From positions 1 to 64,000 of the IMG/VR virus record IMGVR_UViG_3300002835_000041: a stretch of DNA of 64,000 nt. One strand, 5' to 3'. This stretch comes from a virus. Below, piece after piece: positions 1 through 61,602 of this stretch (positions are counted from its first letter, which is position 1; every line of letters begins with the position of its first letter). The notes under the pieces were generated by a model. That model did no database searches and was not told the origin of the DNA. It saw only the letters and a list, made by a program, of their open reading frames with translations. The position numbers and the translations under genes are program-made.

Positions 1-861
1 TTAGCAAAGGATGGCCGTCGTGTAACAATGAAGGCTAATTCTATGGAACTTGAGAAGGTAAACGTCGGTGAGCGTGTAATTCGTGCAGCAGCGCAAGCAG
101 TTGGTAACTACACAAACACAGGTGCAACATTCTCTAAGGTCGAACTTACTACCAAGAAGATTCGTCTTGATTGGGAAGTAACAGCAGAATCATTGGAAGA
201 TGGTGTAGAAGGTGACGCTCTAGAAGATCACTTGGTACGCTTGATGACCAACGCATTCGCAAACGATATCGAAGATCTCGCTATCAATGGTGATGGTGCA
301 ACAGGAGCATTCTTGTCAATCATGCCAGGCTTTATCAACAAGGTAAAGACAAACGGAGATGCACATGAGTCAGTAGTAACCGTAGCAGATAATGCTTGGA
401 CACCTGATGTAATGCAGGGCATCATCAATGCAATGCCACGTAAGTACCGTGCACTTAAGAACAATCTTAAGTTCTACGCAGGTACAGATGCATTCGGTGG
501 AATCGTTAAGAACAACGGTACACTTGCTGATGCAGTAGCAGAAGCATTTGCTGGACAGGTCCCAGGATCAACCCAAGCAAACCGCCAGTCATACCTTGAT
601 GGTATCGGACAGACATTCGGTGGAGCACGTACAACTCGTGTTCTCGGAATCGAAGTTCAGGAAGTTCCTTACTACCCAGCAGGCTATATCGATTTGACAT
701 TCCCTGCAAACCGTGTATGGGGATTCCAAAGAGACATCACTGTAAACCGTGAGTACGTAGCGAAGAAGGATACAATTGAATACACTGTATTCGTTCGCTT
801 CGGTATCAACTGGGAAGAAGAGGATGCAATCGCATTCGCTGACGCTGCAGCAGACGCATAG
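1..861 (+). CDS. Major capsid protein, HK97 fold (5' end cut off)
   Basis: This is the shell subunit of the phage head. The reading frame is open from base 1, so the N-terminus lies outside the window; the ATG at 28 is internal. The visible 287 residues contain the stretch TAESLEDGVEGDALEDHLV followed by AFANDIEDLAINGDGAT, which is the spine-helix and NGDG signature of the phage_capsid (HK97 gp5-like) family. Arg is written almost only as CGT/CGC and Lys as AAG, unlike the AGA/AAA-rich genes that follow, as expected for a very highly expressed gene. A strong hairpin terminator follows. Portal, protease and scaffold genes would be expected just beyond the left edge. Confidence 0.9.
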   Translation, partial: LAKDGRRVTMKANSMELEKVNVGERVIRAAAQAVGNYTNTGATFSKVELTTKKIRLDWEVTAESLEDGVEGDALEDHLVRLMTNAFANDIEDLAINGDGATGAFLSIMPGFINKVKTNGDAHESVVTVADNAWTPDVMQGIINAMPRKYRALKNNLKFYAGTDAFGGIVKNNGTLADAVAEAFAGQVPGSTQANRQSYLDGIGQTFGGARTTRVLGIEVQEVPYYPAGYIDLTFPANRVWGFQRDITVNREYVAKKDTIEYTVFVRFGINWEEEDAIAFADAAADA

Positions 862-882
862 TCTGTAAACAGTACCTTTAAT

Positions 883-916
883 GGGGGGCGGGAGTTCACT
901 CTCCTGTCCCCCTTAA
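883..916 (+). terminator. Intrinsic terminator after the capsid gene
   Basis: A G-run and its C-run partner (about 883-893 with 900-912) form a GC-rich hairpin around a short TTCA-containing loop, followed by TTAAT. It separates the capsid transcript from the next promoter. Confidence 0.75.
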
Positions 917-924
917 TACTTTAA

Positions 925-933
925 TGATATAAT
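925..933 (+). promoter_or_regulatory. Extended -10 promoter for the 952 gene
   Basis: TGATATAAT lies between the capsid terminator and the next gene. The predicted mRNA has a short leader carrying AAGGAGG 8 nt before the ATG at 952. Confidence 0.65.
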
Positions 934-951
934 ACAAACAAGGAGGATACA

Positions 952-1419
952 ATGGAAAATAATAAAACATTAGCAGAGCAATTAGCGGAGAAGCAAGAGT
1001 CTGCAGTTGGATACTGGTCAACACCAGAGCAAGTTAAAGAAGCAGCAGAAGCCAAGTTAGCAGAAGCAGCAGTTGTAGAAGCACCAGTTTCCGAGCCAGT
1101 TGTTGAAGCAGTTGCTGAAGAAGCACCAGCAGCAGTTGTAGAAGCACCAGCAGCAGAAGATCCAGTTCAATCACTAGGATTTACAAAGACAGGTGCTATT
1201 GGATCAATGGCAGCCGATGGCCCAAAGAAAGATGTTAAGCCATCAACAGACCTTACAGAAAAGGTAGCGATCCACTCAACAAAGAGTGTTCGTTGGGAAG
1301 AAGTTGGCTCAATTACTAAGGGTTACAATATTGTCACAAAGGCGCAAGCAGATAAGTGGCTAACCCGTGGACACGTTCGCATTGCAACACCTGAAGAAGT
1401 CCAGAAGGCTTTTGGGTAA
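952..1419 (+). CDS. Head-associated protein, Ala/Glu/Val-rich
   Basis: A 155-residue protein coded straight after the capsid gene. Residues about 25-70 are a low-complexity Ala/Val/Glu/Pro linker. The C-terminal 45 residues look like a compact folded module (WEEVGSITKGYNIVTKAQA, then KWLTRGHVRIATPEEV) that I associate with proteins next to the capsid gene in actinophages. A role in the head (decoration, or a fibre anchored by the C-terminal module) is inferred from position. It has a strong Shine-Dalgarno site (AAGGAGG) and its own extended -10 promoter. No enzymatic motif is visible. Confidence 0.6.
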   Translation: MENNKTLAEQLAEKQESAVGYWSTPEQVKEAAEAKLAEAAVVEAPVSEPVVEAVAEEAPAAVVEAPAAEDPVQSLGFTKTGAIGSMAADGPKKDVKPSTDLTEKVAIHSTKSVRWEEVGSITKGYNIVTKAQADKWLTRGHVRIATPEEVQKAFG

Positions 1420-1425
1420 TTAGAT

Positions 1426-2322
1426 ATGGAAATATTGAGAGTTTCGCCATATGCAGATATATCTGTTGATTTTGTAGTTCCTGCGGGAATAGCATCATCA
1501 CCTATAACTGTTACCATAACGGATATGGCGGATCTTTCAGTATCATCATTAACATTTTTAAATAAATCAGCAGGAAACATTCTTGACATATCTTTACCAG
1601 GAAAGTATGACTCTTCTTATAGAGTTGAGATTGTTAAAAGTCCTGGAACAATAAACGAAGTTTTTTTGCAAGATGAAACATACGAAATAGTTAGACCGTA
1701 TGTAGATCCATCAACAAAAGCAAGCACAGCATCTGACATAGCGACATACGCCATAAATGAAGAAATTGCAAGAGCAGTTATTGATTCAATAATAACAGAA
1801 GGATTTTACTACAAGAAAAAGGTTTTAAATTTTACAGGAACTGGATCAGACTACCTACCTATCTGGGATGATGTAAAAAAGGTATTAGAGGTATACGAAA
1901 ATAACAAGTTGGTAGAAGATAGACAGTACGAAGTTACATCAGATAAGACAGCAATTGTTGAGAAGTCTCTAGACAATATTAATCGTGCAGAGTCTGCCCC
2001 ACTGGTATTGCCAGCAGCAGCATCAGATTCTCTTGATCCACAGTTCGTATACAGAGGGTTTGGCAAGACTTGGGACTATCGGATTACAGTAGAGCATGGA
2101 TATACAGCCGTTCCATCAGACATTGTTCGAGCAACAGAGATGCTAGTTCATGACATTGAGTGTGGTAAGTTAGACTATTACAAGAGATTCATTTCTTCTT
2201 ACAATACAGATCAGTTTAGAATTCAGTTTGACAAGGGTCTTTTCGAAGGAACAGGAAATATAATCGTAGATAAGATACTTTCTAAGTATGCTAAGTCTAT
2301 TACAAAAATTGGTGTGTTGTAA
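1426..2322 (+). CDS. Head-to-tail adaptor-like protein
   Basis: 298 residues. The N-terminal about 100 residues are beta-rich; the C-terminal half is helical, with YTAVPSDIVRATEMLVHDIE followed by a long basic/aromatic helix, resembling head-tail connector (gp6/gp15-like) proteins. It is first in a run of four overlapping neck genes between capsid and tail tube, the expected place for the adaptor that docks on the portal. Its stop overlaps the next start (TAATG). Assignment rests on gene order and helical pattern and is not certain. Confidence 0.55.
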   Translation: MEILRVSPYADISVDFVVPAGIASSPITVTITDMADLSVSSLTFLNKSAGNILDISLPGKYDSSYRVEIVKSPGTINEVFLQDETYEIVRPYVDPSTKASTASDIATYAINEEIARAVIDSIITEGFYYKKKVLNFTGTGSDYLPIWDDVKKVLEVYENNKLVEDRQYEVTSDKTAIVEKSLDNINRAESAPLVLPAAASDSLDPQFVYRGFGKTWDYRITVEHGYTAVPSDIVRATEMLVHDIECGKLDYYKRFISSYNTDQFRIQFDKGLFEGTGNIIVDKILSKYAKSITKIGVL

Positions 2323-2771
2323 TGACAGTTTGTGAGACACCAGATTTTATGTTTCCAATGCAGGCATCTGTATATCATCCAATAGTAAAACAAGGAGACT
2401 TTGGTTCAATCAAAAAGCACTGGGTTTTAGATAGAGTTTTTGCATGTAGTTTTAGTACTGGAGGTTCTGCATTTAAAGAAGAAGTAAAGCCAAATGTCAA
2501 CATTACACAAAATTCAATTCTTGTCGGAAGATCAAAGTCTGACATCAGAATCTCTTCTCTTGATAGTAAGAATGCTTTAACCAATATCTTGATATCTGAC
2601 ATTAAAGATCAAGAAGGTAACCTTATCTACATGGAGACATCTGGTCCTAGATCTGGTAAAGGCACACTTTTTGAAATAGCAACCTTTGAGCCTTTTACTG
2701 GACCGTTTGGAACTGTAGAGTCCTACAAGTTAGTAATAAGAAGATCAGAGAATCAGTCAGGTGATGTATGA
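2322..2771 (+). CDS. Head closure (stopper)-like neck protein
   Basis: 149 residues, mostly predicted beta strands, in the second neck position between adaptor and tail completion genes. It starts within the stop codon of the previous gene and overlaps the next by 4 nt, so it is probably made by coupled translation. No catalytic motif is seen. The head-stopper role is inferred from synteny with lambda/HK97-like phages. Confidence 0.45.
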   Translation: MTVCETPDFMFPMQASVYHPIVKQGDFGSIKKHWVLDRVFACSFSTGGSAFKEEVKPNVNITQNSILVGRSKSDIRISSLDSKNALTNILISDIKDQEGNLIYMETSGPRSGKGTLFEIATFEPFTGPFGTVESYKLVIRRSENQSGDV

Positions 2772-3442
2772 TAACAACATTTAACTCAAAGCAGTTTAAA
2801 AAAGATATGAATAATATAGTTAACTACTCTATTGGATTTTTAGACGGTGTGCAAAAAGGAAAGACAGTATTTTTAAAGACCATGGGAATGGAAACAGTCG
2901 AGGTAATGAAAGAGTTTATAGACTCAAACGCAAGGGTAAATCCTCAGATGCTTCATCACATATATGAGTGGAATCTAACTGGAAGCCCAGACGCAAGACT
3001 TTACGACATATCGTATACAGTAAGTAACTTGGGTCTATCTTTTAAATCATCTTTTAGTCAGTCAAGATCAATCAAGGATGGATCACGAACTCCTTTTTAT
3101 GATAAAGCAAGGATTATGGAAAACGGTATTCCAGTTACAATCAGGCCTAGGTCTGCACAGGTTTTGGCATTTGAGGACAATGGGGAGACAGTATTTACTC
3201 GTGGTCCAGTTGAGATTTTAAATCCTGGAGGAACGGAAGTAGAAGGTGGTTTTGAAAAGGTATTTGATATGTTCTTTAATAAGTTTTTCTCACAAGCATT
3301 TTTAAGAACAAGCGGGATTGCAAAATATCTTGAGAATCCCCAAGTATATAAAAAAGATATGCCAGCAGGAAAGAAATTAGGAAGATCTAAGGGCATATCG
3401 ACGGGGTATCGCTGGATCGCTAACGCAGGGTTAGGTGCATAA
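2768..3442 (+). CDS. Neck / tail-completion protein (HK97 gp10-like position)
   Basis: 224 residues. A helical N-terminus (residues 1-60) is followed by a mixed region with SRSIKDGSRTPFYDKARIME and a basic C-terminal tail (KKDMPAGKKLGRSKG). Overlaps both neighbours by a few bases. In comparable phages this slot holds the tail-completion protein that joins neck and tube; there is no independent sequence proof here. Confidence 0.45.
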   Translation: MITTFNSKQFKKDMNNIVNYSIGFLDGVQKGKTVFLKTMGMETVEVMKEFIDSNARVNPQMLHHIYEWNLTGSPDARLYDISYTVSNLGLSFKSSFSQSRSIKDGSRTPFYDKARIMENGIPVTIRPRSAQVLAFEDNGETVFTRGPVEILNPGGTEVEGGFEKVFDMFFNKFFSQAFLRTSGIAKYLENPQVYKKDMPAGKKLGRSKGISTGYRWIANAGLGA

Positions 3443-38616: not shown

Positions 38617-38645
38617 CCTGGTGGGCGAAAGCCCACCAGGGTTTA
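38617..38645 (+). terminator. Strong intrinsic terminator after the secreted-protein gene
   Basis: CCTGGTGGGC and GCCCACCAGG form a perfect 10-bp stem closed by a GAAA tetraloop, followed by GTTTA. Confidence 0.9.
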
Positions 38646-38647
38646 CT

Positions 38648-39409
38648 ATGAAATCAATTTATTTTAATCATATACCAAGAACTGGTGGCACTACCATTGC
38701 TAGAATGTTACAAAATTCTGGGCTAAATAAGTGTGATTTAAATATTCTTAGTCCGCAAGAATCTATTGCTAAAAACAAAGAATTTAACAAGACCACTATC
38801 TCTCAAAGTGAATTAATTATGGGTCACTATGGAGTTGCTCCTTCAATACTTAATTCAGATATTGACACAATCACTATATTAAGAAATCCAGTAAATCAGG
38901 TAGTTAGTATGTTTTCCAAATTAAATTATGAAAGCAAAGAGTCAAAAAGCAAAGCACTGGTTCTTGATATATTTAGATCAAGCAAATTTAAAAATGATCT
39001 GCCGAGCCTTTTTATAGAATGGCTTTATGATGAAAGGTCAGTAGATTACACCAATAATGGACAAATACATAACCTAATAAATACAAGGTATCCATATCTG
39101 TATGATCCCAAAACAGGAGAGGATGCAGATAAAGAAACACAAATCCCCGTAACGATTAAGAATGCTAAAGAAAAAATAGACTCTCTTTTGTTTTTAGGAA
39201 CTACAGAAAATATTTATAGTAGTTATATTCAAATATTGGATATTGTAAATACCAGGTTTAATGTTAGCCTAAAACAACTTAGTAGGCCAGGAATCTATAA
39301 CAGCCTAAAGGAAACAGATCAAGTACTAAAAACATTAAAAAACTCAGAGATAGAATATATCCTAGAAAAAAGCAGTATAGACAATTACTATTGGGAGCAG
39401 GCTCTTTAA
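38648..39409 (+). CDS. Sulfotransferase family protein
   Basis: 253 residues from ATG 38648; the upstream in-frame start lies in the terminator. FNHIPRTGGTTIARML (residues 6-21) is the 5'-phosphosulfate loop of PAPS-dependent sulfotransferases, and TILRNPVNQVVSMF the 3'-phosphate site. It would transfer sulfate from PAPS to a hydroxyl or amine acceptor. Another sulfotransferase-like gene (60938) and an APS-kinase-like fusion (50392) are in the window. Acceptor unknown. No clear promoter; only 3 nt follow the terminator. Confidence 0.75.
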   Translation: MKSIYFNHIPRTGGTTIARMLQNSGLNKCDLNILSPQESIAKNKEFNKTTISQSELIMGHYGVAPSILNSDIDTITILRNPVNQVVSMFSKLNYESKESKSKALVLDIFRSSKFKNDLPSLFIEWLYDERSVDYTNNGQIHNLINTRYPYLYDPKTGEDADKETQIPVTIKNAKEKIDSLLFLGTTENIYSSYIQILDIVNTRFNVSLKQLSRPGIYNSLKETDQVLKTLKNSEIEYILEKSSIDNYYWEQAL

Positions 39410-43907: not shown

Positions 43908-43980
43908 TGCCCTATAACTCAGTTGGTAGAGTGCCGAACTGTTAATTCGGATGTCCCTGGATCGAGGCCAGGTGGGGCAG
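43908..43980 (+). tRNA. tRNA-Asn (GTT)
   Basis: Full cloverleaf: acceptor TGCCCTA/TGGGGCA, D arm ACTC/GAGT, anticodon stem CCGAA/TTCGG with loop CTGTTAA, and T stem CCTGG/CCAGG. The 3' CCA is not encoded. It stands between the protease gene and the tailoring operon. Confidence 0.93.
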
Positions 43981-43990
43981 CAGTTTAGTG

Positions 43991-43996
43991 TATAAT
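43991..43996 (+). promoter_or_regulatory. Promoter of the tailoring operon (44029-48982)
   Basis: GTG-TATAAT just after tRNA-Asn, then a leader of about 25 nt with AAGATAAAGG before the ATG at 44029. No other obvious promoter or terminator interrupts the next six genes. Confidence 0.6.
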
Positions 43997-44028
43997 TGTT
44001 ATACCAAAACATTTAAGATAAAGGTAAA

Positions 44029-44688
44029 ATGATAACTAAAAAAAATAACATTTCAGGATCCCAATGGTGGATAAACTCTGAAAACTTATCATTGCCTCAA
44101 ATTTTAATGGAGTCTGGACTACCAGACAAATGGTCTAAGTATAACTCAAAAGAAATTTTAAACATAAAAAGCATACTTAAACCAATAAATAACTATGTCC
44201 TTAATCTATATCCAAAGCCAGAAATTATAAACATAACAAATAACATAGTTACTTTTAGGCAAAGAACTCACGCCGAGATTTGGGTTGAAGAAAGAAAAGA
44301 TGGCACACTGTATGCTTTAGATAAGTGTCATCAAAGACAGTTCTATCCATCTTTAAACAATCTAGAAAATAAAGAGTGTTTTGATCCAACCTATAAGTTT
44401 TATATACCCTGGTTTATAAATAAAAATGTTAGCATTAAGATAGCCAGAGTAGAGGATGAGCCTACACCATTCTACATAGGTGAAAAAAATATTATTGGAA
44501 AGCCCCTGCCACATCTATCAGACTATGCCTATTCAGAGTTTGTTGATTTTAAAATTAAGAATACTGGGGAATACTACTTAAAAGAAAAGTATGCTATTAT
44601 TAGTAAGAGCACGGCAATGTACGATATGTCTGTTGTCTTAAGTGACGAAGAGATATCACAAATAAAGGATTACTATGGACAGCAATGA
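44029..44688 (+). CDS. Unknown protein, first gene of the tailoring operon
   Basis: 219 residues, Asn/Lys/Tyr-rich, with RTHAEIWVEERKDGTLYALD and KNTGEYYLKEKYAIISKS. No signal peptide, membrane helix or catalytic motif is recognised. It overlaps the next gene by 14 nt. Both first operon genes look beta-rich and may be a substrate-binding pair; that is speculation. Confidence 0.5.
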   Translation: MITKKNNISGSQWWINSENLSLPQILMESGLPDKWSKYNSKEILNIKSILKPINNYVLNLYPKPEIINITNNIVTFRQRTHAEIWVEERKDGTLYALDKCHQRQFYPSLNNLENKECFDPTYKFYIPWFINKNVSIKIARVEDEPTPFYIGEKNIIGKPLPHLSDYAYSEFVDFKIKNTGEYYLKEKYAIISKSTAMYDMSVVLSDEEISQIKDYYGQQ

Positions 44689-45439
44689 GTTAGAATTAAC
44701 TTTCATTCCACACGATACGACCACAGGTCTATTGTCTCCAGAGCCATCCTATAAAAAAATACCACAGTGGTATAGAGATTTGGCAAAACATTTTACAACT
44801 AATGACCTAAAGTCTTTGTGTCCAGTAAACGATAGGGGCGGGGATGGGTCAAATGTTTCTACAAAACTATGCTTGCCATTTCAAGATGCAATGTCTCTTG
44901 GGTATATGTATTTACTGGAAGATGACCTAGAAGTAAAACTTGATATAGATGGAAAGCCATCTCTGTCCTGGAAAAAGAATTTTATGATGATGGACAAAAG
45001 ACCTAATGTTGATATGGCAATACCAAAAGATGTTCACCCAATACATTTTGGGGTTAAGATGCAATGGTATTACGAAACACCAAAAGACTATTCTCTATTG
45101 ATGACTATGCCAATAAACAGACCAGACCTACCGTTCTGGATTCCTTCTGGCATTGTTGATTCTGATATATGGGGACTGCCTGCGTTTATACCATTTTTTA
45201 TAAAAAGAGATTTTGAAGGAGTCATTCCAATGGGAACACCAGTGTTTCAGATGATTCCAATTAAAAGAGAGCCTTGGAATTTAGTAGTTGATGATTCTTT
45301 TGAGGCTATAGAAAAACACCAACTAAGATCAGAAAACAGAAGGTCTGACATAACGGCACACTACAGAAAATTTGCATGGAGAAAAAAAGAATATGCAAAG
45401 TATAACAAAGAACAAGCAAACAACAAGGGAGATGAATAA
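44675..45439 (+). CDS. Unknown protein of the tailoring operon
   Basis: 254 residues. Distinctive blocks are PSYKKIPQWYRDLAKHF, YSLLMTMPINRPDLPFWIPS, FIKRDFEGVIPMGTPVFQMI and PIKREPWNLVV. Proteins with these blocks occur, to my recollection, in other aquatic phages next to oxygenase genes. A double-psi or jelly-roll fold is possible. Its stop and the next start overlap. Confidence 0.5.
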   Translation: MDSNELELTFIPHDTTTGLLSPEPSYKKIPQWYRDLAKHFTTNDLKSLCPVNDRGGDGSNVSTKLCLPFQDAMSLGYMYLLEDDLEVKLDIDGKPSLSWKKNFMMMDKRPNVDMAIPKDVHPIHFGVKMQWYYETPKDYSLLMTMPINRPDLPFWIPSGIVDSDIWGLPAFIPFFIKRDFEGVIPMGTPVFQMIPIKREPWNLVVDDSFEAIEKHQLRSENRRSDITAHYRKFAWRKKEYAKYNKEQANNKGDE

Positions 45440-46080
45440 TGTTAAGTAACAGAGAACATAAGTTTTTTGAAAAATATTTAGACAACGATTTAGATCAGTT
45501 GGCTAAATTTTTAGAACAAAAATACGAACTAATTCAAAGCGCTAAACTTCGTGGCGTTGAAACAATGGAAAATGATCCAGGGTATTGGCTAGAGTCTGGA
45601 AGTTTGTCAACTGTAAAGTGGAGAGAGTATAATGTATTTCAACTTTATCATCCATCTCTTCATAAACTATACTCCGAACTATCAAAAACTGTTAAAGAAG
45701 CCTGTGAATATTATGGCGTAGACTTTGAAAAGCAGCAATATTATGTTCAGGGTTGGTTTAATATTAATACCACAGGAAATGGAAAGTTAAACTGGCACGA
45801 TCACGGTGCACCTGGCGCTCCTAATTTTCATGGGTATTACTGTGTAAAGGCTGAGCCATCAACGACATACTATAGACTCTTTGGAGATCCAAATAGAGAA
45901 GTGGCAAATCACAACATAAACAATAGAATGATTGTTTCAGAAATGGGACACCCTCATGCAATGGGAGACTGGGACTGGGAAGGTTCAAGAATAACAGTTG
46001 CGTATGATATTCAACCTCTGCAGTCTTTGCTTATGGGTGGAGAACATACAATTGAACAGCACTGGATTCCATTGTTATAA
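45439..46080 (+). CDS. 2-oxoglutarate/Fe(II) oxygenase-like protein
   Basis: 213 residues. WHDHGAPGAPNFHGYYCVKA supplies His and Asp ligands, SEMGHPHAMGDWDWEGSRIT the distal His and the Arg that would bind 2-oxoglutarate, and VAYDI the closing strand of the jelly roll. The layout follows cyanophage-type putative hydroxylases. Located between the unknown pair and the glycosyltransferase, it may create the hydroxyl used by later steps. Substrate unknown. Confidence 0.6.
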   Translation: MLSNREHKFFEKYLDNDLDQLAKFLEQKYELIQSAKLRGVETMENDPGYWLESGSLSTVKWREYNVFQLYHPSLHKLYSELSKTVKEACEYYGVDFEKQQYYVQGWFNINTTGNGKLNWHDHGAPGAPNFHGYYCVKAEPSTTYYRLFGDPNREVANHNINNRMIVSEMGHPHAMGDWDWEGSRITVAYDIQPLQSLLMGGEHTIEQHWIPLL

Positions 46081-46081
46081 A

Positions 46082-46915
46082 ATGAAAAAAATATTAGTTT
46101 ATTTTTATGGGTACAAAAGCAAGTTGCTACCACAAGCAGTAGAGCAACTCATAAAAAATCAAAGTGGTCAAAATGATATACATGTTGTCGTATACGACCA
46201 AACAAATATATCAAGGCCAGAAAAGTTTTTAGGAATAGAATACAATCATATCTACTGGGATAGATTAATATCTAGATTTAAATGCTTTTATCTTCTAAAA
46301 AAAAGAAAAGATTTTGATTTTTTTATGTATGTTGATGGTGCCAAAATGTTTGAAAAGGATTGGGATGCTGAACTATTAAGATACCAGGACGAATCAGATA
46401 TTATACTTTCAGGCAATCACGACATTGTTTTTAATAAAAATAACTATAAGTTTTATCCAGACTGGAATAAAACAAGCATTGCAATGGCAACAAAAAACAA
46501 CTGGTTTGTTAAAGATTTTTTCTTTATGAAATTTAGTTTGTTTGAACTATTTCCTGATATTTCAATATTTAAATATTATGGAGTTGAGGAATATGTTTCC
46601 ATGTATGCAGCGCACAAAGGTATTTCTATAGTTGCTCTTCCAACTAATTTTGTTATTGATCAAGAGCCTAGAATAGAAGAAAATGATTTTGTTCCATTTT
46701 CTCTATATCACAACTATTCAAAAGTTATAGATTCTTTTAAATCAAAAGATGAATCTATGCCTGGAGTAAAAGAACTTATGGATCTTGTAGACTATGATTT
46801 CCGTAGTTTAGAATACTTCCCATATAATACAAACGATGTAGAGTATACATTTTTTTCAAATCTAGATAAAATTTCTGAGCAAAGATTTCATGTAGTGCAG
46901 AATGAGGTATATTGA
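46082..46915 (+). CDS. Glycosyltransferase-like protein (GT-A)
   Basis: 277 residues from ATG 46082, one base after the previous stop. MKKILVYFYGYKSKLLPQA starts a Rossmann-like strand. FMYVDGAKMFEKDWDAELL carries an acidic D-x-x/D motif like the metal-binding DXD of GT-A enzymes, followed by a probable acceptor loop (SGNHDIVF). It would attach a sugar to a hydroxylated acceptor, in keeping with hydroxylases on both sides. Sugar and target unknown. Confidence 0.5.
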   Translation: MKKILVYFYGYKSKLLPQAVEQLIKNQSGQNDIHVVVYDQTNISRPEKFLGIEYNHIYWDRLISRFKCFYLLKKRKDFDFFMYVDGAKMFEKDWDAELLRYQDESDIILSGNHDIVFNKNNYKFYPDWNKTSIAMATKNNWFVKDFFFMKFSLFELFPDISIFKYYGVEEYVSMYAAHKGISIVALPTNFVIDQEPRIEENDFVPFSLYHNYSKVIDSFKSKDESMPGVKELMDLVDYDFRSLEYFPYNTNDVEYTFFSNLDKISEQRFHVVQNEVY

Positions 46916-47478
46916 TGATAACATTGCCTGTAGTAATTAAAAATTTTATTGCTGCTGAAGATGCACAGACACTAATAAATGAGATTAACAGTCCATCAGA
47001 AGTTAATCCTTACCCAGAATATTACAAGACTAGGTATGGAGGAACTGCTTATCCATACAACAAGGTAGTTTTAGATATTCAAAAAAAATATTCTTTACTA
47101 TCTAACGAGACACACCAAAGACTTAATCCAGAAGAAACAAAGCAAATAAAAACATTTAAATCTTTTGGTTCAGTTTGGACAAAAGGTAGTTCAGCAAACG
47201 CACACGCTGACGATCAGCCACCAGAAGAATTCATTGAATATAGTACGGTAATATATCTTGACGATAATTTTACTGGAGGAGAATTATATTTCCCAAATCT
47301 TAACTTTACATATAAGCCAGAAAAATATGATGGGATATTTTTTGTTAGTGACGGAGAATTATGGAGTCATGGAATATCCGAAATAGAAAGTGGACATAGG
47401 TCAACCCTACTCTACATGCACACAACACAAACAGAACATTCAGGGGGGTATACAATTGTTGATCCAGACCTTAATTAA
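46915..47478 (+). CDS. Prolyl-4-hydroxylase-like 2OG/Fe(II) oxygenase
   Basis: 187 residues; ATG 46915 is preferred to TTG 46912 by distance from GAGG. HADDQ gives the H-x-D, LWSHGISEIESGHRSTLLYM the distal His and the Arg, and STVIYLDDNFTGGELYFPNL the P4H-type core. Starts against the stop of the glycosyltransferase. Likely hydroxylates an amino-acid side chain or similar group; the target is unknown. Confidence 0.75.
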   Translation: MITLPVVIKNFIAAEDAQTLINEINSPSEVNPYPEYYKTRYGGTAYPYNKVVLDIQKKYSLLSNETHQRLNPEETKQIKTFKSFGSVWTKGSSANAHADDQPPEEFIEYSTVIYLDDNFTGGELYFPNLNFTYKPEKYDGIFFVSDGELWSHGISEIESGHRSTLLYMHTTQTEHSGGYTIVDPDLN

Positions 47479-47557
47479 AAAAATTAAGACATACTTAATA
47501 CTAAGAGAAATAAAGAAAAATGATAAAAAAAACAGATACCTGTATTAAGGATAATAT

Positions 47558-48982
47558 ATGATAATTCTTGGAGTAAACGAAACATCTCATGACGCATCAG
47601 TATCTCTAATCAAAGATGGAGAAATTCTTTTTGCAGGGCATGCAGAAAGATATAGCAAACAAAAAAATGACTGGTATATCAATGATAGTTTAATAAAAGA
47701 TGCTTTGCAGTATGGGGCACCAGATCATATTGCCTACTATGAAAAGCCCCTTCTGAAGGCCTCTAGGCTGGCTCTAAGGGGTGGATCTGGAGACTGGAAA
47801 CCAAGGTTTGATATTCCTGGTATACCAAGGAAACATTTTAGTCATCACTATTCTCACGCTGCAGCGGGATACTACACTAGTTCTTTTAGTGATTCCGTAA
47901 TAGTTGTGCTTGATGCTATTGGAGAATACAACACATCTACAATATGGGTTGGTGAAGGAGATAAGATTAGGCTAAAGTATAAGCAAAACTATCCAGTTAG
48001 TTTTGGATTATTTTATTCTGCTTTCACAAAACTAATAGGTCTAATGCCAAATCAAGAAGAATATATCATGATGGGAATGGCAGCATACGGAGACTGGACA
48101 AAATACTATAGAAAAGTAGATGAGTATTTTCCTTCATATACAAAACAAAAATATAATTTTCATCAGGGAATAAATGATTGGGGAGTAAAGATCACTGAGC
48201 AAGATAGGTTTGATATTGCTGCAGCAGTTCAGGTTGTCTATGAGCAAAGACTAAATGATTTTATGCACATGGCATACTCTATTACTGGAAAAAAGAATTT
48301 AGTATTTATGGGTGGTTGTGCACTTAACTCATCAGCAAACACTATGCTTTGGAACATATTTGATATGATCTGGATTATGCCAAACCCTGGAGATGCTGGC
48401 AGTTCTTTGGGTGCTGCTGCTGCACTTTATGGAAAACATCTTGAATGGAAAGACCCATACCTTGGTTATGATCTGGGTGGAAAATATCCTATTCAGAAAA
48501 TTATTGAGGGGATATTAAAAGACGGTATAGTAGCAGTAGCATCAGGAAGAGCAGAATATGGTCCAAGAGCATTAGGAAATAGATCAATTCTTGCAGACCC
48601 AAGAGATCCACTAATCAAAGACAAAGTAAATAGAATTAAACAGAGAGAATTATTTAGGCCATTTGCTCCTGTAGTTTTAGCAGATCACGCATATAGATGG
48701 TTTGATATGGATTTTGAAAGCCCATATATGCAGTACACAGTCAAGTGCTTACAGCCAGACAAGATACCTTCTGTGGTTCATGAAGATGGTACTTCTAGAG
48801 TTCAGACAGTTACAAGAGAACAACATCCAGGATTGTACAGGGTTATAAATAAATTTTATCTACAAACTGGAGTTCCAATACTCTTGAATACTAGTCTTAA
48901 CATAAAGGGTCAACCGCTCCTAAATGATGAAAACGATATACTTAAATGGGAAAAAGAATACAACTTTACAATATGTAGGTAA
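47558..48982 (+). CDS. Carbamoyltransferase (NodU/CmcH/TobZ family)
   Basis: 474 residues. It begins MIILGVNETSHDASVSLIKD, the family opening; has HHYSHAAAGYYTS (metal/substrate His set), FMGGCALNSSANTMLW, PNPGDAGSSLGAAAALYG and the C-terminal YrdC-like-interface block GRAEYGPRALGNRSILADP. These enzymes carbamoylate hydroxyls using carbamoyl phosphate and ATP. About 100 residues shorter than typical NodU. In this operon it would cap a hydroxyl on a sugar or other acceptor. AAGGATA precedes the ATG. Confidence 0.88.
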   Translation: MIILGVNETSHDASVSLIKDGEILFAGHAERYSKQKNDWYINDSLIKDALQYGAPDHIAYYEKPLLKASRLALRGGSGDWKPRFDIPGIPRKHFSHHYSHAAAGYYTSSFSDSVIVVLDAIGEYNTSTIWVGEGDKIRLKYKQNYPVSFGLFYSAFTKLIGLMPNQEEYIMMGMAAYGDWTKYYRKVDEYFPSYTKQKYNFHQGINDWGVKITEQDRFDIAAAVQVVYEQRLNDFMHMAYSITGKKNLVFMGGCALNSSANTMLWNIFDMIWIMPNPGDAGSSLGAAAALYGKHLEWKDPYLGYDLGGKYPIQKIIEGILKDGIVAVASGRAEYGPRALGNRSILADPRDPLIKDKVNRIKQRELFRPFAPVVLADHAYRWFDMDFESPYMQYTVKCLQPDKIPSVVHEDGTSRVQTVTREQHPGLYRVINKFYLQTGVPILLNTSLNIKGQPLLNDENDILKWEKEYNFTICR

Positions 48983-49019: not shown

Positions 49020-49634
49020 ATGGCAGCAAAAGGTAGTCTAGAAGCAATCATTGAGATTGCAAAAAAGGAAGTGGGCACAATTGAAGGCCCTAAAGATAAT
49101 GAAACAAAATATGGCAAGTGGACTGGGATGAATTTTCAGCCATGGTGCCAGTCATTTGTTTCTTGGTGTGCATTTACATCGGGATTAGATCCAAAGAAGT
49201 ATCCAAAGTCTGCATCAACAGTAGCAGCGTCAGATTGGTTCAAGAAGAATGGGCGTTGGTCAGATGCTCGTAATGATGATCCACAAGCAGGAGACTGGAT
49301 TTATTTTGATTTTCCAGAAGATGGTGTAAATCGTATTTCACATGTTGGAATCTGTATCAAGAACAACGGAGATGGAACAATCCAAGTTATTGAGGGAAAC
49401 ACTTCAGGAACTGCAAAGGGAGATCAGCGCAATGGCGGAATGTGCGTAGAGAAGACTCGTGGTTATGTAAAAAACAACAAGAAGAAGTTGCTTAATGGAG
49501 TTGTCGGTTGGGGTCGTCCAGTTTATACTGGTGAAGAAAATGCTCCGCTTCTCAATAAGGTGGTAGCACCAGTTGTAGCAAAGCCTGCAGTAAAGCCAGT
49601 AGTTAAGAAACCAGTAGCAAAGAAGGCTAAGTAA
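49020..49634 (+). CDS. Endolysin with CHAP-type amidase/peptidase domain
   Basis: 204 residues. PWCQSFVSWC contains the catalytic Cys (Cys43), and RISHVGICI the His (His108), followed by VIEGNT; this is the CHAP/NlpC-P60-like cysteine hydrolase layout that cuts peptidoglycan. The last 35 residues are an Ala/Pro/Val/Lys tail with Lys pairs that may bind the wall. Strong AAAGGAGG site and AAG/CGT codons fit late, high expression. No signal peptide, so a holin is needed for export. Confidence 0.85.
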   Translation: MAAKGSLEAIIEIAKKEVGTIEGPKDNETKYGKWTGMNFQPWCQSFVSWCAFTSGLDPKKYPKSASTVAASDWFKKNGRWSDARNDDPQAGDWIYFDFPEDGVNRISHVGICIKNNGDGTIQVIEGNTSGTAKGDQRNGGMCVEKTRGYVKNNKKKLLNGVVGWGRPVYTGEENAPLLNKVVAPVVAKPAVKPVVKKPVAKKAK

Positions 49635-53167: not shown

Positions 53168-53449
53168 TTGAATAAATTTAAATGGAAAGACAACGCTGTT
53201 TGTTTAGATTATGACACAAATTTATTCTTTGACAAATATGAAGATGATGAAATACTAAGGCCAGCAATAGATGCTTTATGCTTTTCCTGCCCAGTAAGAA
53301 AAGAATGTTTTTCTGTTGGAATTTCAGGTAAAGAGTGGGGTGTTTGGGGCGGGGTATACTTAGAAAATGGAGAGATATCAAAAGAATTCTCTAGCCACAA
53401 GAGTAAAAATGACTGGGGAATGACATGGCAATCATTAACAATGGAGTAA
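53168..53449 (+). CDS. WhiB-family iron-sulfur transcription regulator
   Basis: 93 residues from a TTG codon. Four cysteines (12, 38, 41, 47; CFSCPVRKEC) ligate the [4Fe-4S] cluster and GVWGG (58-62) is the sigma-factor contact turn. WhiB proteins exist only in actinobacteria and their phages, where they bind SigA region 4 and alter promoter choice. The basic tail is short and weak here. Probably redirects host RNA polymerase, perhaps toward the TG-extended phage promoters; that is inference. Confidence 0.9.
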   Translation: MNKFKWKDNAVCLDYDTNLFFDKYEDDEILRPAIDALCFSCPVRKECFSVGISGKEWGVWGGVYLENGEISKEFSSHKSKNDWGMTWQSLTME

Positions 53450-60937: not shown

Positions 60938-61480
60938 TTATATTATTATCTTTTTTTCTAAAAGTTTGTTGTAATAATAATAGCACAAACCAATATTTAG
61001 ATCATCTGACAAATCTTTATTGTAGTCTGGCAAATCTTTGCTTGACTCAACAAAAAAGGGATCTGGCTGTCCGTAATCTCCATCAAAAAGATGATGCTCA
61101 TCTTCCTTAATATCTAATAGTTCTATTAACTTTTTAATTGTAGTGTCTGGGTATTTAACAAGATCATTAAAGTCTATAACATAGTCTGCATGCTCATATA
61201 AAAAACTATAAAGAAGTATGTATTCTGATACAATTTGATTAACTCTTTGCCATGTAACCTCATAAACACCACGATGTTCCGCTGCAATATATGAGGCAAT
61301 GCTGTCTCTAGGATCTCTTGCTATGGTAATTATTACCCTTTGCTTATTGTGATCCTTATCAAATGCCCAATTAATTGTATGAGTTTTTTCAATACGGAAT
61401 CCTGACTCTTTTTCAAAAAGTCTATCAAAATAGTGGGATCCGCTTCTTGGGTATGTGCTTAAATGCGGTTTGTATTTCAC
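60938..61480 (-). CDS. Sulfotransferase family protein
   Basis: 180 residues from GTG 61480, which overlaps the stop of the 61602 microgene; earlier in-frame ATG 61513 lies inside that gene. STYPRSGSHYFDRLF is the 5'-phosphosulfate loop and VIITIARDPRDSIASYIAAE the 3'-phosphate site of PAPS sulfotransferases. Shorter than most (about 250-300). Different subfamily from 38648, so a different acceptor is likely. Confidence 0.75.
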   Translation of the reverse strand: MKYKPHLSTYPRSGSHYFDRLFEKESGFRIEKTHTINWAFDKDHNKQRVIITIARDPRDSIASYIAAEHRGVYEVTWQRVNQIVSEYILLYSFLYEHADYVIDFNDLVKYPDTTIKKLIELLDIKEDEHHLFDGDYGQPDPFFVESSKDLPDYNKDLSDDLNIGLCYYYYNKLLEKKIII

Positions 61481-61602
61481 GACACTAAGCCCATAGATAG
61501 GTGACCAAGGCACACATCAGCAACAATATAGTCGGAATGATTAACGACAATATCAAAATGCGTTGCGTCTTTATCACAAAAAAAACATTTAGACTTCTTC
61601 AT
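61477..61602 (-). CDS. Zinc-binding microprotein
   Basis: 41 residues with CFFC near residue 6 and CLGH near 31, a CCCH metal set. Leaderless ATG at 61602. Its stop overlaps the sulfotransferase start, so the two are coupled. Function unknown. Confidence 0.6.
   Translation of the reverse strand: MKKSKCFFCDKDATHFDIVVNHSDYIVADVCLGHLSMGLVS

What the first reader, a model, noticed from the sequence alone, without database searches (positions are those of the whole stretch)
43991..48982. Six-gene hydroxylation-glycosylation-carbamoylation operon
Two unknown proteins, an oxygenase, a glycosyltransferase, a P4H-like hydroxylase and a NodU-type carbamoyltransferase are packed with overlaps behind one promoter. 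The order suggests a pathway: hydroxylate, add sugar, carbamoylate. No phage pathway with this exact set is known to me. Targets could be a virion protein, a tail-bound glycan or a host polymer. The endolysin follows from its own promoter.
Basis: inference. Interest (0 to 1): 0.7.

Follow-up and report, generated by a model that had tools for sequence, protein, structure and literature searches.

The report
Conserved phage hydroxylase-glycosyltransferase gene cassette
Viruses of water bacteria carry a tightly conserved row of five genes that probably adds hydroxyl groups and then sugars to one of the virus's own proteins, a pathway type known so far mainly from amoebae and parasites; its real target is still unknown.

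Summary
The six genes are real and packed as described, but they are not one six-gene pathway. The conserved unit is a five-gene cassette: U1 (44029), U2 (44675), an oxygenase-fold protein OX (45439) or a second U2-type gene, a GT60-like glycosyltransferase (46082) and a prolyl-hydroxylase-like enzyme (46915). The order U1-U2-(OX or U2')-GT held in 83 of 83 dereplicated loci (one lacks the third gene), and in 43 of 43 loci from a U1-only retrieval. The NodU-type carbamoyltransferase (47558) is a mobile neighbour: before, after or absent, often present without the cassette, and diverging with the phage backbone, not with the cassette. U2 belongs to DUF6065, with a predicted dUTPase-like fold; U1 is partly its distant relative. 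A U2 paralog sits beside a tail-fibre gene in many relatives; in 26 of 83 cassettes its ortholog lies inside the cassette. The 5-hydroxymethylcytosine route is not supported: no thymidylate synthase or cytosine-5 methylase in 16 long records. Best reading (about 0.4): protein hydroxylation then glycosylation, most likely of a tail or other virion protein, resembling the Skp1 hydroxyproline pathway. No acceptor was found: three candidates failed co-variation tests. The function of U1 and U2 is unknown.

The parts
43908..43981 (+). tRNA-Asn (gtt) immediately upstream of the cassette
   Evidence: ARAGORN; nearly identical in six relatives
43991..43996 (+). TATAAT element, candidate -10 box, no convincing -35
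   Evidence: conserved in six relatives; the consensus scan itself is at chance level
44029..44688 (+). U1, cassette signature gene of unknown function; C-terminal about 97 columns homologous to U2
   Evidence: no Pfam or PHROG hit; hhalign U1 vs U2 probability 93%, E 3e-7; no hit in 50,697 phage records, none confirmed in 84,980 genomes
44675..45439 (+). U2, DUF6065-family protein (phrog_7084) with a predicted dUTPase/dCTP-deaminase-like fold
   Evidence: phrog_7084 1.2e-30; 18 of 38 family members hit PF19541; model pLDDT 85; the top 50 PDB fold matches are dUTPases or a dCTP deaminase
45439..46080 (+). OX, 2OG-Fe(II)-oxygenase-fold protein with no Pfam match
   Evidence: model pLDDT 86; PDB fold matches are 2OG oxygenases (2rg4 4.6e-5, proline hydroxylase H11 6.7e-4); invariant H120, H122, H131, H173, R184
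46082..46915 (+). GT, divergent PF11397 (GT60-type) glycosyltransferase-like protein
   Evidence: 17 of 36 family members hit PF11397 (best 1.6e-8); hhalign to a clear PF11397 protein of the same genome 94.8%, E 5e-8; WD invariant, acidic residue variable
46915..47478 (+). P4H-like 2OG-Fe(II) oxygenase
   Evidence: PF13640 1.2e-5; profile best PDB hits prolyl 3-hydroxylase 1 2.3e-9 and bacterial P4H 5.7e-7; H97, D99, H152 invariant in 30
47558..48982 (+). NodU/TobZ-type O-carbamoyltransferase; neighbour, not part of the co-inherited unit
   Evidence: PF16861 1.3e-53, PF02543 1.3e-34; phrog_1601; PDB NovN/GdmN/TobZ; mobility and divergence
49020..49634 (+). CHAP endolysin, downstream neighbour outside the cassette
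   Evidence: PF05257 1.6e-11

Best explanation
The first five genes are a phage-borne cassette for making a modified protein inside the infected cell. The P4H-like enzyme, and in this phage probably OX, hydroxylate side chains, most likely proline, using oxygen and 2-oxoglutarate. The GT60-like enzyme then puts a HexNAc-type sugar on the hydroxyl, or on a nearby Ser/Thr. U1 and U2, which share a dUTPase-like (beta-clip) domain, are obligatory partners, either binding the acceptor or handling the nucleotide-sugar. The acceptor is most likely a tail-fibre or other virion protein, because the second DUF6065 protein (U2') lies either beside the tail-fibre gene or inside the cassette. The carbamoyltransferase next door acts separately and may decorate the same glycan in some phages. 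Shown: gene order, co-inheritance of U1/U2/OX/GT, fold and family assignments, conserved active sites of the oxygenases, U2' relocation. Inferred: substrate, order of steps, sugar, role of U1/U2, virion target.
For: Order U1-U2-(OX|U2')-GT in 83/83 loci and P4H next; 43/43 in a U1-only retrieval. U1, U2, OX and GT divergences correlate with each other (rho 0.37-0.63), GT and P4H (0.45), against 0.15-0.37 for U1 or GT versus backbone genes. GT belongs to PF11397, whose characterised members put GlcNAc on hydroxyproline of Skp1 (Gnt1, GT60, after the P4H PhyA; PMC6939170) or on protein Thr (T. cruzi; own knowledge). P4H profiles are closest in the PDB to protein prolyl hydroxylases, not TET enzymes (2.3e-9 vs 0.08). 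OX has the oxygenase fold. DUF6065 paralogs: the tail-fibre-adjacent copies (11) and the first DUF6065 of 26 double cassettes form one clade (support 0.993), the cassette U2s another (0.993). In one clade the whole cassette lies between the tail-fibre gene and a LamG-like protein gene. No ThyA or C5-methylase in 16 records.
Against: No acceptor found. Three candidate acceptors do not co-vary with the cassette: the tail-fibre repeat lacks proline in some cassette-positive phages (e.g. G006) and is richest in cassette-negative ones; the PT-repeat protein and the collagen-like protein occur with or without the cassette. The window GT itself has no significant Pfam hit and its family loses the acidic metal-binding position in several members. 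PF13640 enzymes hydroxylate many things besides proline. A dUTPase-like fold for U1/U2 is not explained by protein glycosylation. Cassette-negative phages also carry a tail-linked DUF6065. OX occurs next to the carbamoyltransferase without the other cassette genes in about a dozen groups.
Confidence: 0.4

Rival explanations
1. Nucleic-acid or nucleotide hypermodification. U1/U2 handle pyrimidine nucleotides, the oxygenases hydroxylate a base (for example the thymine methyl, as in base J synthesis), the GT glycosylates it and in some phages the carbamoyltransferase caps it, protecting phage DNA from host nucleases.
For: U2 has a dUTPase/dCTP-deaminase-like fold and the DUF6065 paralog sits beside a B12-dependent ribonucleotide reductase in this phage, with an RNR gene close by in halovirus HF2 too; phage carbamoyltransferases can act on 5-hydroxymethylcytosine (PMC8670742). 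An oxygenase acting directly on thymine would need neither ThyA nor a methylase. No canonical dUTPase in 20 long records.
Against: No ThyA or C5-methylase in 16 records; in PMC8670742 carbamoyltransferase with thymidylate synthase occurred only on modified contigs. The P4H is closer to protein prolyl hydroxylases than to TET; only 1 of 30 members touches Tet_JBP. The carbamoyltransferase does not co-evolve with the cassette. The GT family is a polypeptide GlcNAc-transferase family.
Confidence: 0.2
2. Host surface or glycan modification. The enzymes build or alter a small glycoconjugate or host polymer during infection, for example to exclude superinfecting phages.
For: Carbamoyltransferase, SGNH-type genes, sulfotransferase and sugar dehydratase genes are present in these phages; NodU/TobZ-type enzymes carbamoylate sugars on small molecules; glycosyltransferases of freshwater actinophages have been proposed to alter the host cell wall (PMC10202952).
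Against: P4H and GT families act mostly on proteins in characterised cases; no membrane or polymerase-type partner lies in the cassette; the sugar genes are scattered and not linked to it.
Confidence: 0.2
3. U1/U2 are themselves the acceptors or are structural/assembly proteins of the tail fibre (a DUF6065 chaperone or adaptor), and the adjoining enzymes modify them.
For: U1 and U2 are the most constant members; DUF6065 is tail-fibre-linked in 14 of the long records and lies near baseplate and VP1 genes in HF2.
Against: U2 has many invariant polar residues (K64, C66, D71, D84, D164, Q192, R198), which looks more like an active or binding site than a scaffold.
Confidence: 0.12
4. The six-gene pathway: hydroxylation, glycosylation and carbamoylation of one acceptor as an obligatory sequence.
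For: The carbamoyltransferase lies within a few genes in 50 of 84 cassette loci of the first set and near most loci of the second.
Against: Absent near 31 cassettes, present in 41 loci without U1; divergence follows the phage backbone (rho 0.53-0.81) and not the cassette (0.13-0.26).
Confidence: 0.08

Closest known systems
Skp1 hydroxyproline-glycosylation pathway (PhyA + Gnt1/GT60) of Dictyostelium and Toxoplasma
   Same: a P4H-type oxygenase paired with a PF11397/GT60-type polypeptide GlcNAc-transferase
   Different: phage genes in a fixed operon with U1 and U2 (DUF6065) and often a second oxygenase; no Skp1; acceptor and sugar unknown; GT very divergent
Phage 5-hydroxymethylcytosine carbamoyltransferase system (MetaGPA, PMC8670742)
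   Same: a NodU-type carbamoyltransferase in a phage
   Different: no thymidylate synthase/hydroxymethylase partner here; the carbamoyltransferase is not tied to the cassette
Nol-like carbamoyltransferases of cyanophages and pelagiphages (phrog_1601)
   Same: direct homologs, best hits 28-41% identity in marine viruses and cyanophages
   Different: the U1, OX and GT proteins have no match in the annotated phage collection
DUF6065 proteins of haloarchaeal tailed viruses (HF1, HF2, HRTV)
   Same: U2 homologs, about 30% identity over 90% of the length; baseplate and VP1 genes lie nearby
   Different: no hydroxylase or glycosyltransferase annotated next to them in HF2
dUTPase / dCTP deaminase superfamily
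   Same: predicted fold of U2 and a GxVDxD motif resembling dUTPase motif 3 (motif comparison from own knowledge)
   Different: no sequence match to PF00692, extra N-terminal elements, activity untested

Membership tests
PF11397 / GT60 polypeptide GlcNAc-transferase (GT 46082) | profile membership | tested here: met
   17 of 36 family members hit PF11397 at E<=0.1, best 1.6e-8; hhalign 94.8% to a full PF11397 protein; the window protein alone has no hit
PF11397 / GT60 polypeptide GlcNAc-transferase (GT 46082) | acidic metal-binding motif before the WD | tested here: inconclusive
   D present in the window protein (VDG..WD), shifted or absent in several relatives
PF11397 / GT60 polypeptide GlcNAc-transferase (GT 46082) | transfers GlcNAc to Hyp or Thr | not testable with these tools
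   needs an enzyme assay
Prolyl 4-hydroxylase-type 2OG-Fe(II) oxygenase (46915) | HxD...H iron triad and basic 2OG-binding residue | tested here: met
   H97, D99, H152 invariant, R162 at least 90% in 30 sequences
Prolyl 4-hydroxylase-type 2OG-Fe(II) oxygenase (46915) | closest to protein prolyl hydroxylases rather than TET/JBP | tested here: met
   P3H1 2.3e-9, bacterial P4H 5.7e-7, Tet-like 0.078
Prolyl 4-hydroxylase-type 2OG-Fe(II) oxygenase (46915) | hydroxylates proline in protein | not testable with these tools
   needs an assay or proteomics
2OG-Fe(II) oxygenase superfamily (OX 45439) | double-stranded beta-helix fold | tested here: met
   predicted-fold matches 2rg4 4.6e-5, 3bvc 1.3e-4, proline hydroxylase 6.7e-4
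2OG-Fe(II) oxygenase superfamily (OX 45439) | canonical HxD/E...H triad | tested here: inconclusive
   invariant H120-(D/E)121-H122, H131, H173, R184; which of these bind iron is not resolved
NodU/TobZ O-carbamoyltransferase (47558) | both Carbam_trans domains | tested here: met
   PF02543 1.3e-34, PF16861 1.3e-53; NovN, GdmN and TobZ matches
5-hydroxymethylcytosine carbamoylation system | partner thymidylate synthase-type hydroxymethylase | tested here: not met
   PF00303 in 0 of 16 records, positive controls found
Base J / TET-type DNA modification | TET/JBP oxygenase | tested here: not met
   1 of 30 P4H homologs touches Tet_JBP at 9.5e-4; otherwise PF13640
dUTPase (U2) | PF00692 sequence match | tested here: not met
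   no hit in hmmscan and in 0 of 20 records
dUTPase (U2) | dUTPase-like fold | tested here: met
   top 50 PDB fold hits are dUTPases or dCTP deaminase, best E 5.1e-4; TM modest, about 0.2-0.35 by query and 0.4-0.6 by target
DUF6065 (U2) | PF19541 profile match | tested here: met
   18 of 38 members match at E<=0.1, best 3.3e-6; the window protein alone does not
Skp1-type pathway | Skp1 or another identified protein acceptor | tested here: not met
   no acceptor identified; three candidates failed co-variation

The most novel reading that the evidence does not exclude
A phage-encoded hydroxyproline (or hydroxy-amino-acid) O-glycosylation pathway that decorates tail-fibre or other virion proteins, built on a P4H and a GT60-like enzyme as in eukaryotic Skp1 modification, with obligatory DUF6065 dUTPase-fold partners, one of which moves between the tail-fibre locus and the cassette.
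Probability: 0.25. Interest if true: 0.78.

Novelty: new variant of a known kind. Interest (0 to 1): 0.56.

Why it matters
Phage oxygenases and carbamoyltransferases are usually filed as unexplained auxiliary genes. Here a fixed cassette, found in about 126 distinct virus loci and with three of its proteins unmatched in all annotated phage records searched, gives a testable hydroxylation-glycosylation unit. It gives the uncharacterised family DUF6065 a predicted fold and a genomic link to tail fibres, and offers a possible prokaryotic-virus counterpart of the Skp1 pathway. It also corrects the idea that the neighbouring carbamoyltransferase is part of the pathway.

Tried and rejected
Six-gene pathway: rejected, the carbamoyltransferase is independent. 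5hmC carbamoylation: no ThyA or C5-methylase. Tail-fibre repeat protein (FN3 + repeat + Hint-like) as acceptor: repeats such as (FTPFG)n looked promising beside the cassette, but a cassette-positive phage has a proline-free repeat and cassette-negative phages have the most proline. PT-repeat PA14 protein (39797) and collagen-like protein as acceptors: no co-variation with the cassette. Whole-window DNA search in phages: no match. U1 in 84,980 genomes: none confirmed. PDB sequence search for U2, OX and GT: nothing useful, hence structure prediction. No held paper mentions DUF6065.
Full report
What the record is. The window is part of a 118,981-base virus record. It carries a WhiB gene (53168-53449; PF02467 2.1e-11), a marker used for actinophages (PMC10202952), and a DnaE-type polymerase. 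The host is therefore probably a low-GC actinobacterium (inference).

Observation. Six plus-strand genes lie at 44029-48982 after a tRNA-Asn. The first five overlap or nearly touch; the carbamoyltransferase follows a 79-nt gap. A TATAAT element at 43991-43996 is conserved in six relatives, while the promoter scan as a whole is at chance level. All six genes are under purifying selection (dN/dS 0.03-0.31).

Co-occurrence. About 300 loci were fetched with the six proteins as separate queries and reduced to 132 groups by shared sequence. Every U1 with a downstream neighbour is followed by U2 (83/83). Next comes OX (56), a second U2-type gene (26) or directly the GT (1); every GT with enough flank has U1 within four genes upstream (83/83); a P4H usually follows. 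A later retrieval using U1 alone, in a distant clade, gave 43 of 43 with U1-U2-U2-GT followed by a P4H; some of those contigs are shared with the first set. The cassette sits in several genomic places: after a protease gene and tRNA, after the carbamoyltransferase, or between a tail-fibre gene and a LamG-like protein gene.

Unit of inheritance. Pairwise protein divergences correlate within U1/U2/OX/GT (rho 0.37-0.63) and between the two P4H genes (0.54), more than U1 or GT does with flanking genes (0.15-0.37). The carbamoyltransferase correlates with the flanking genes (0.53-0.81) and hardly with the cassette (0.13-0.26). These are rank correlations of raw distances with a bootstrap over loci, not a formal reconciliation, and some intervals overlap. 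With the position counts (34 downstream, 16 upstream, 31 absent, 41 carbamoyltransferase loci without U1) they show the carbamoyltransferase is not an obligatory member. In about a dozen groups OX stands next to the carbamoyltransferase without U1, U2 or GT.

Protein identities. The GT family reaches PF11397 in 17 of 36 members and aligns with a full PF11397 protein elsewhere in the same genome (82159-83127). The WD is invariant, but the acidic residue before it is missing in several relatives, so activity of all members is not assured. The P4H profile is closest in the PDB to prolyl 3-hydroxylase and bacterial P4H, with the iron triad invariant. OX has no Pfam match, but its model (pLDDT 86) matches 2OG oxygenases. 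U2 is a DUF6065 protein whose model (pLDDT 85) matches the dUTPase superfamily. The C-terminal part of U1 is distantly homologous to U2. The carbamoyltransferase aligns with NovN, GdmN and TobZ.

Link to the tail fibre. All 20 long records searched carry at least one DUF6065 gene. In 14 records a copy lies beside a fibronectin-III tail-fibre-like gene. In the three double-DUF6065 cassette records examined (G006, G007, G019) no such tail copy was found; instead the first DUF6065 gene of the cassette belongs to the tail clade (11 tail copies and 26 cassette copies, support 0.993), while all cassette U2s form another clade (0.993). In this genome the tail locus is 102492 (tail fibre) - 104276 - 104797 (distant relative of a paralog of OX that has lost its histidines) - 105242 (U2') - 106052 (ribonucleotide reductase) - 108111. 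This gene movement is the main reason to place the target on the virion side. It is indirect, and the ribonucleotide reductase next door would also suit a nucleotide role.

Rivals tested. Thymidylate synthase and C5-methylase are absent from 16 records with working controls, against the known 5-hydroxymethylcytosine carbamoylation route. An oxygenase acting directly on thymine is not excluded. Candidate acceptors (tail-fibre repeats, PT-repeat protein, collagen-like protein) do not co-vary with the cassette.

Verdict. A real, apparently phage-restricted, strongly conserved five-gene cassette whose enzymes resemble a protein hydroxylation-glycosylation pathway. The carbamoyltransferase is a separate neighbour. 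Substrate and the role of U1/U2 are open.

Noticed in passing
G000 102492-104270 (outside the window; L308:3492-5267) and L309-L327: Tail-fibre-like proteins with fibronectin-III domains, a Hint-like C-terminus in many, and extreme tandem repeats that differ between relatives: (FTPFG)n, (FGA)n, (PFFPFFP)n, (FFSPPL)n, (YNYYNFYN)n.
   Followed up: partly
G000 80555-81739 (L306:17555-18739): A cytochrome P450 gene (PF00067, 7.7e-57) in the same phage record.
   Followed up: no
window 54091, 54696, 61618, 63316 (PF13640); 31889 and G000 90390 suspected by eye: Several further 2OG-Fe(II) oxygenase genes scattered in the genome; four are confirmed by PF13640.
   Followed up: partly
window 28-3442 versus G000 115247-118953: A block of head-region genes appears twice in the record in diverged form.
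   Followed up: no
L117:7239-7799, L129:7236-7796, L137:7256-7813, L144:7266-7823; G000 104797-105210: A paralog of OX that has lost the conserved histidines sits between the tail-fibre gene and the DUF6065 paralog.
   Followed up: partly
window 60938-61513 and 38621-39409: Sulfotransferase (PF00685, 1e-5) and another possible sulfotransferase-like protein without a Pfam hit.
   Followed up: partly
L116:3651-4547, L330:12310-12999, L338:9966-11769: SGNH-hydrolase-like genes (by eye, no Pfam hit) repeatedly adjoin the carbamoyltransferase or lie between the cassette and it.
   Followed up: partly
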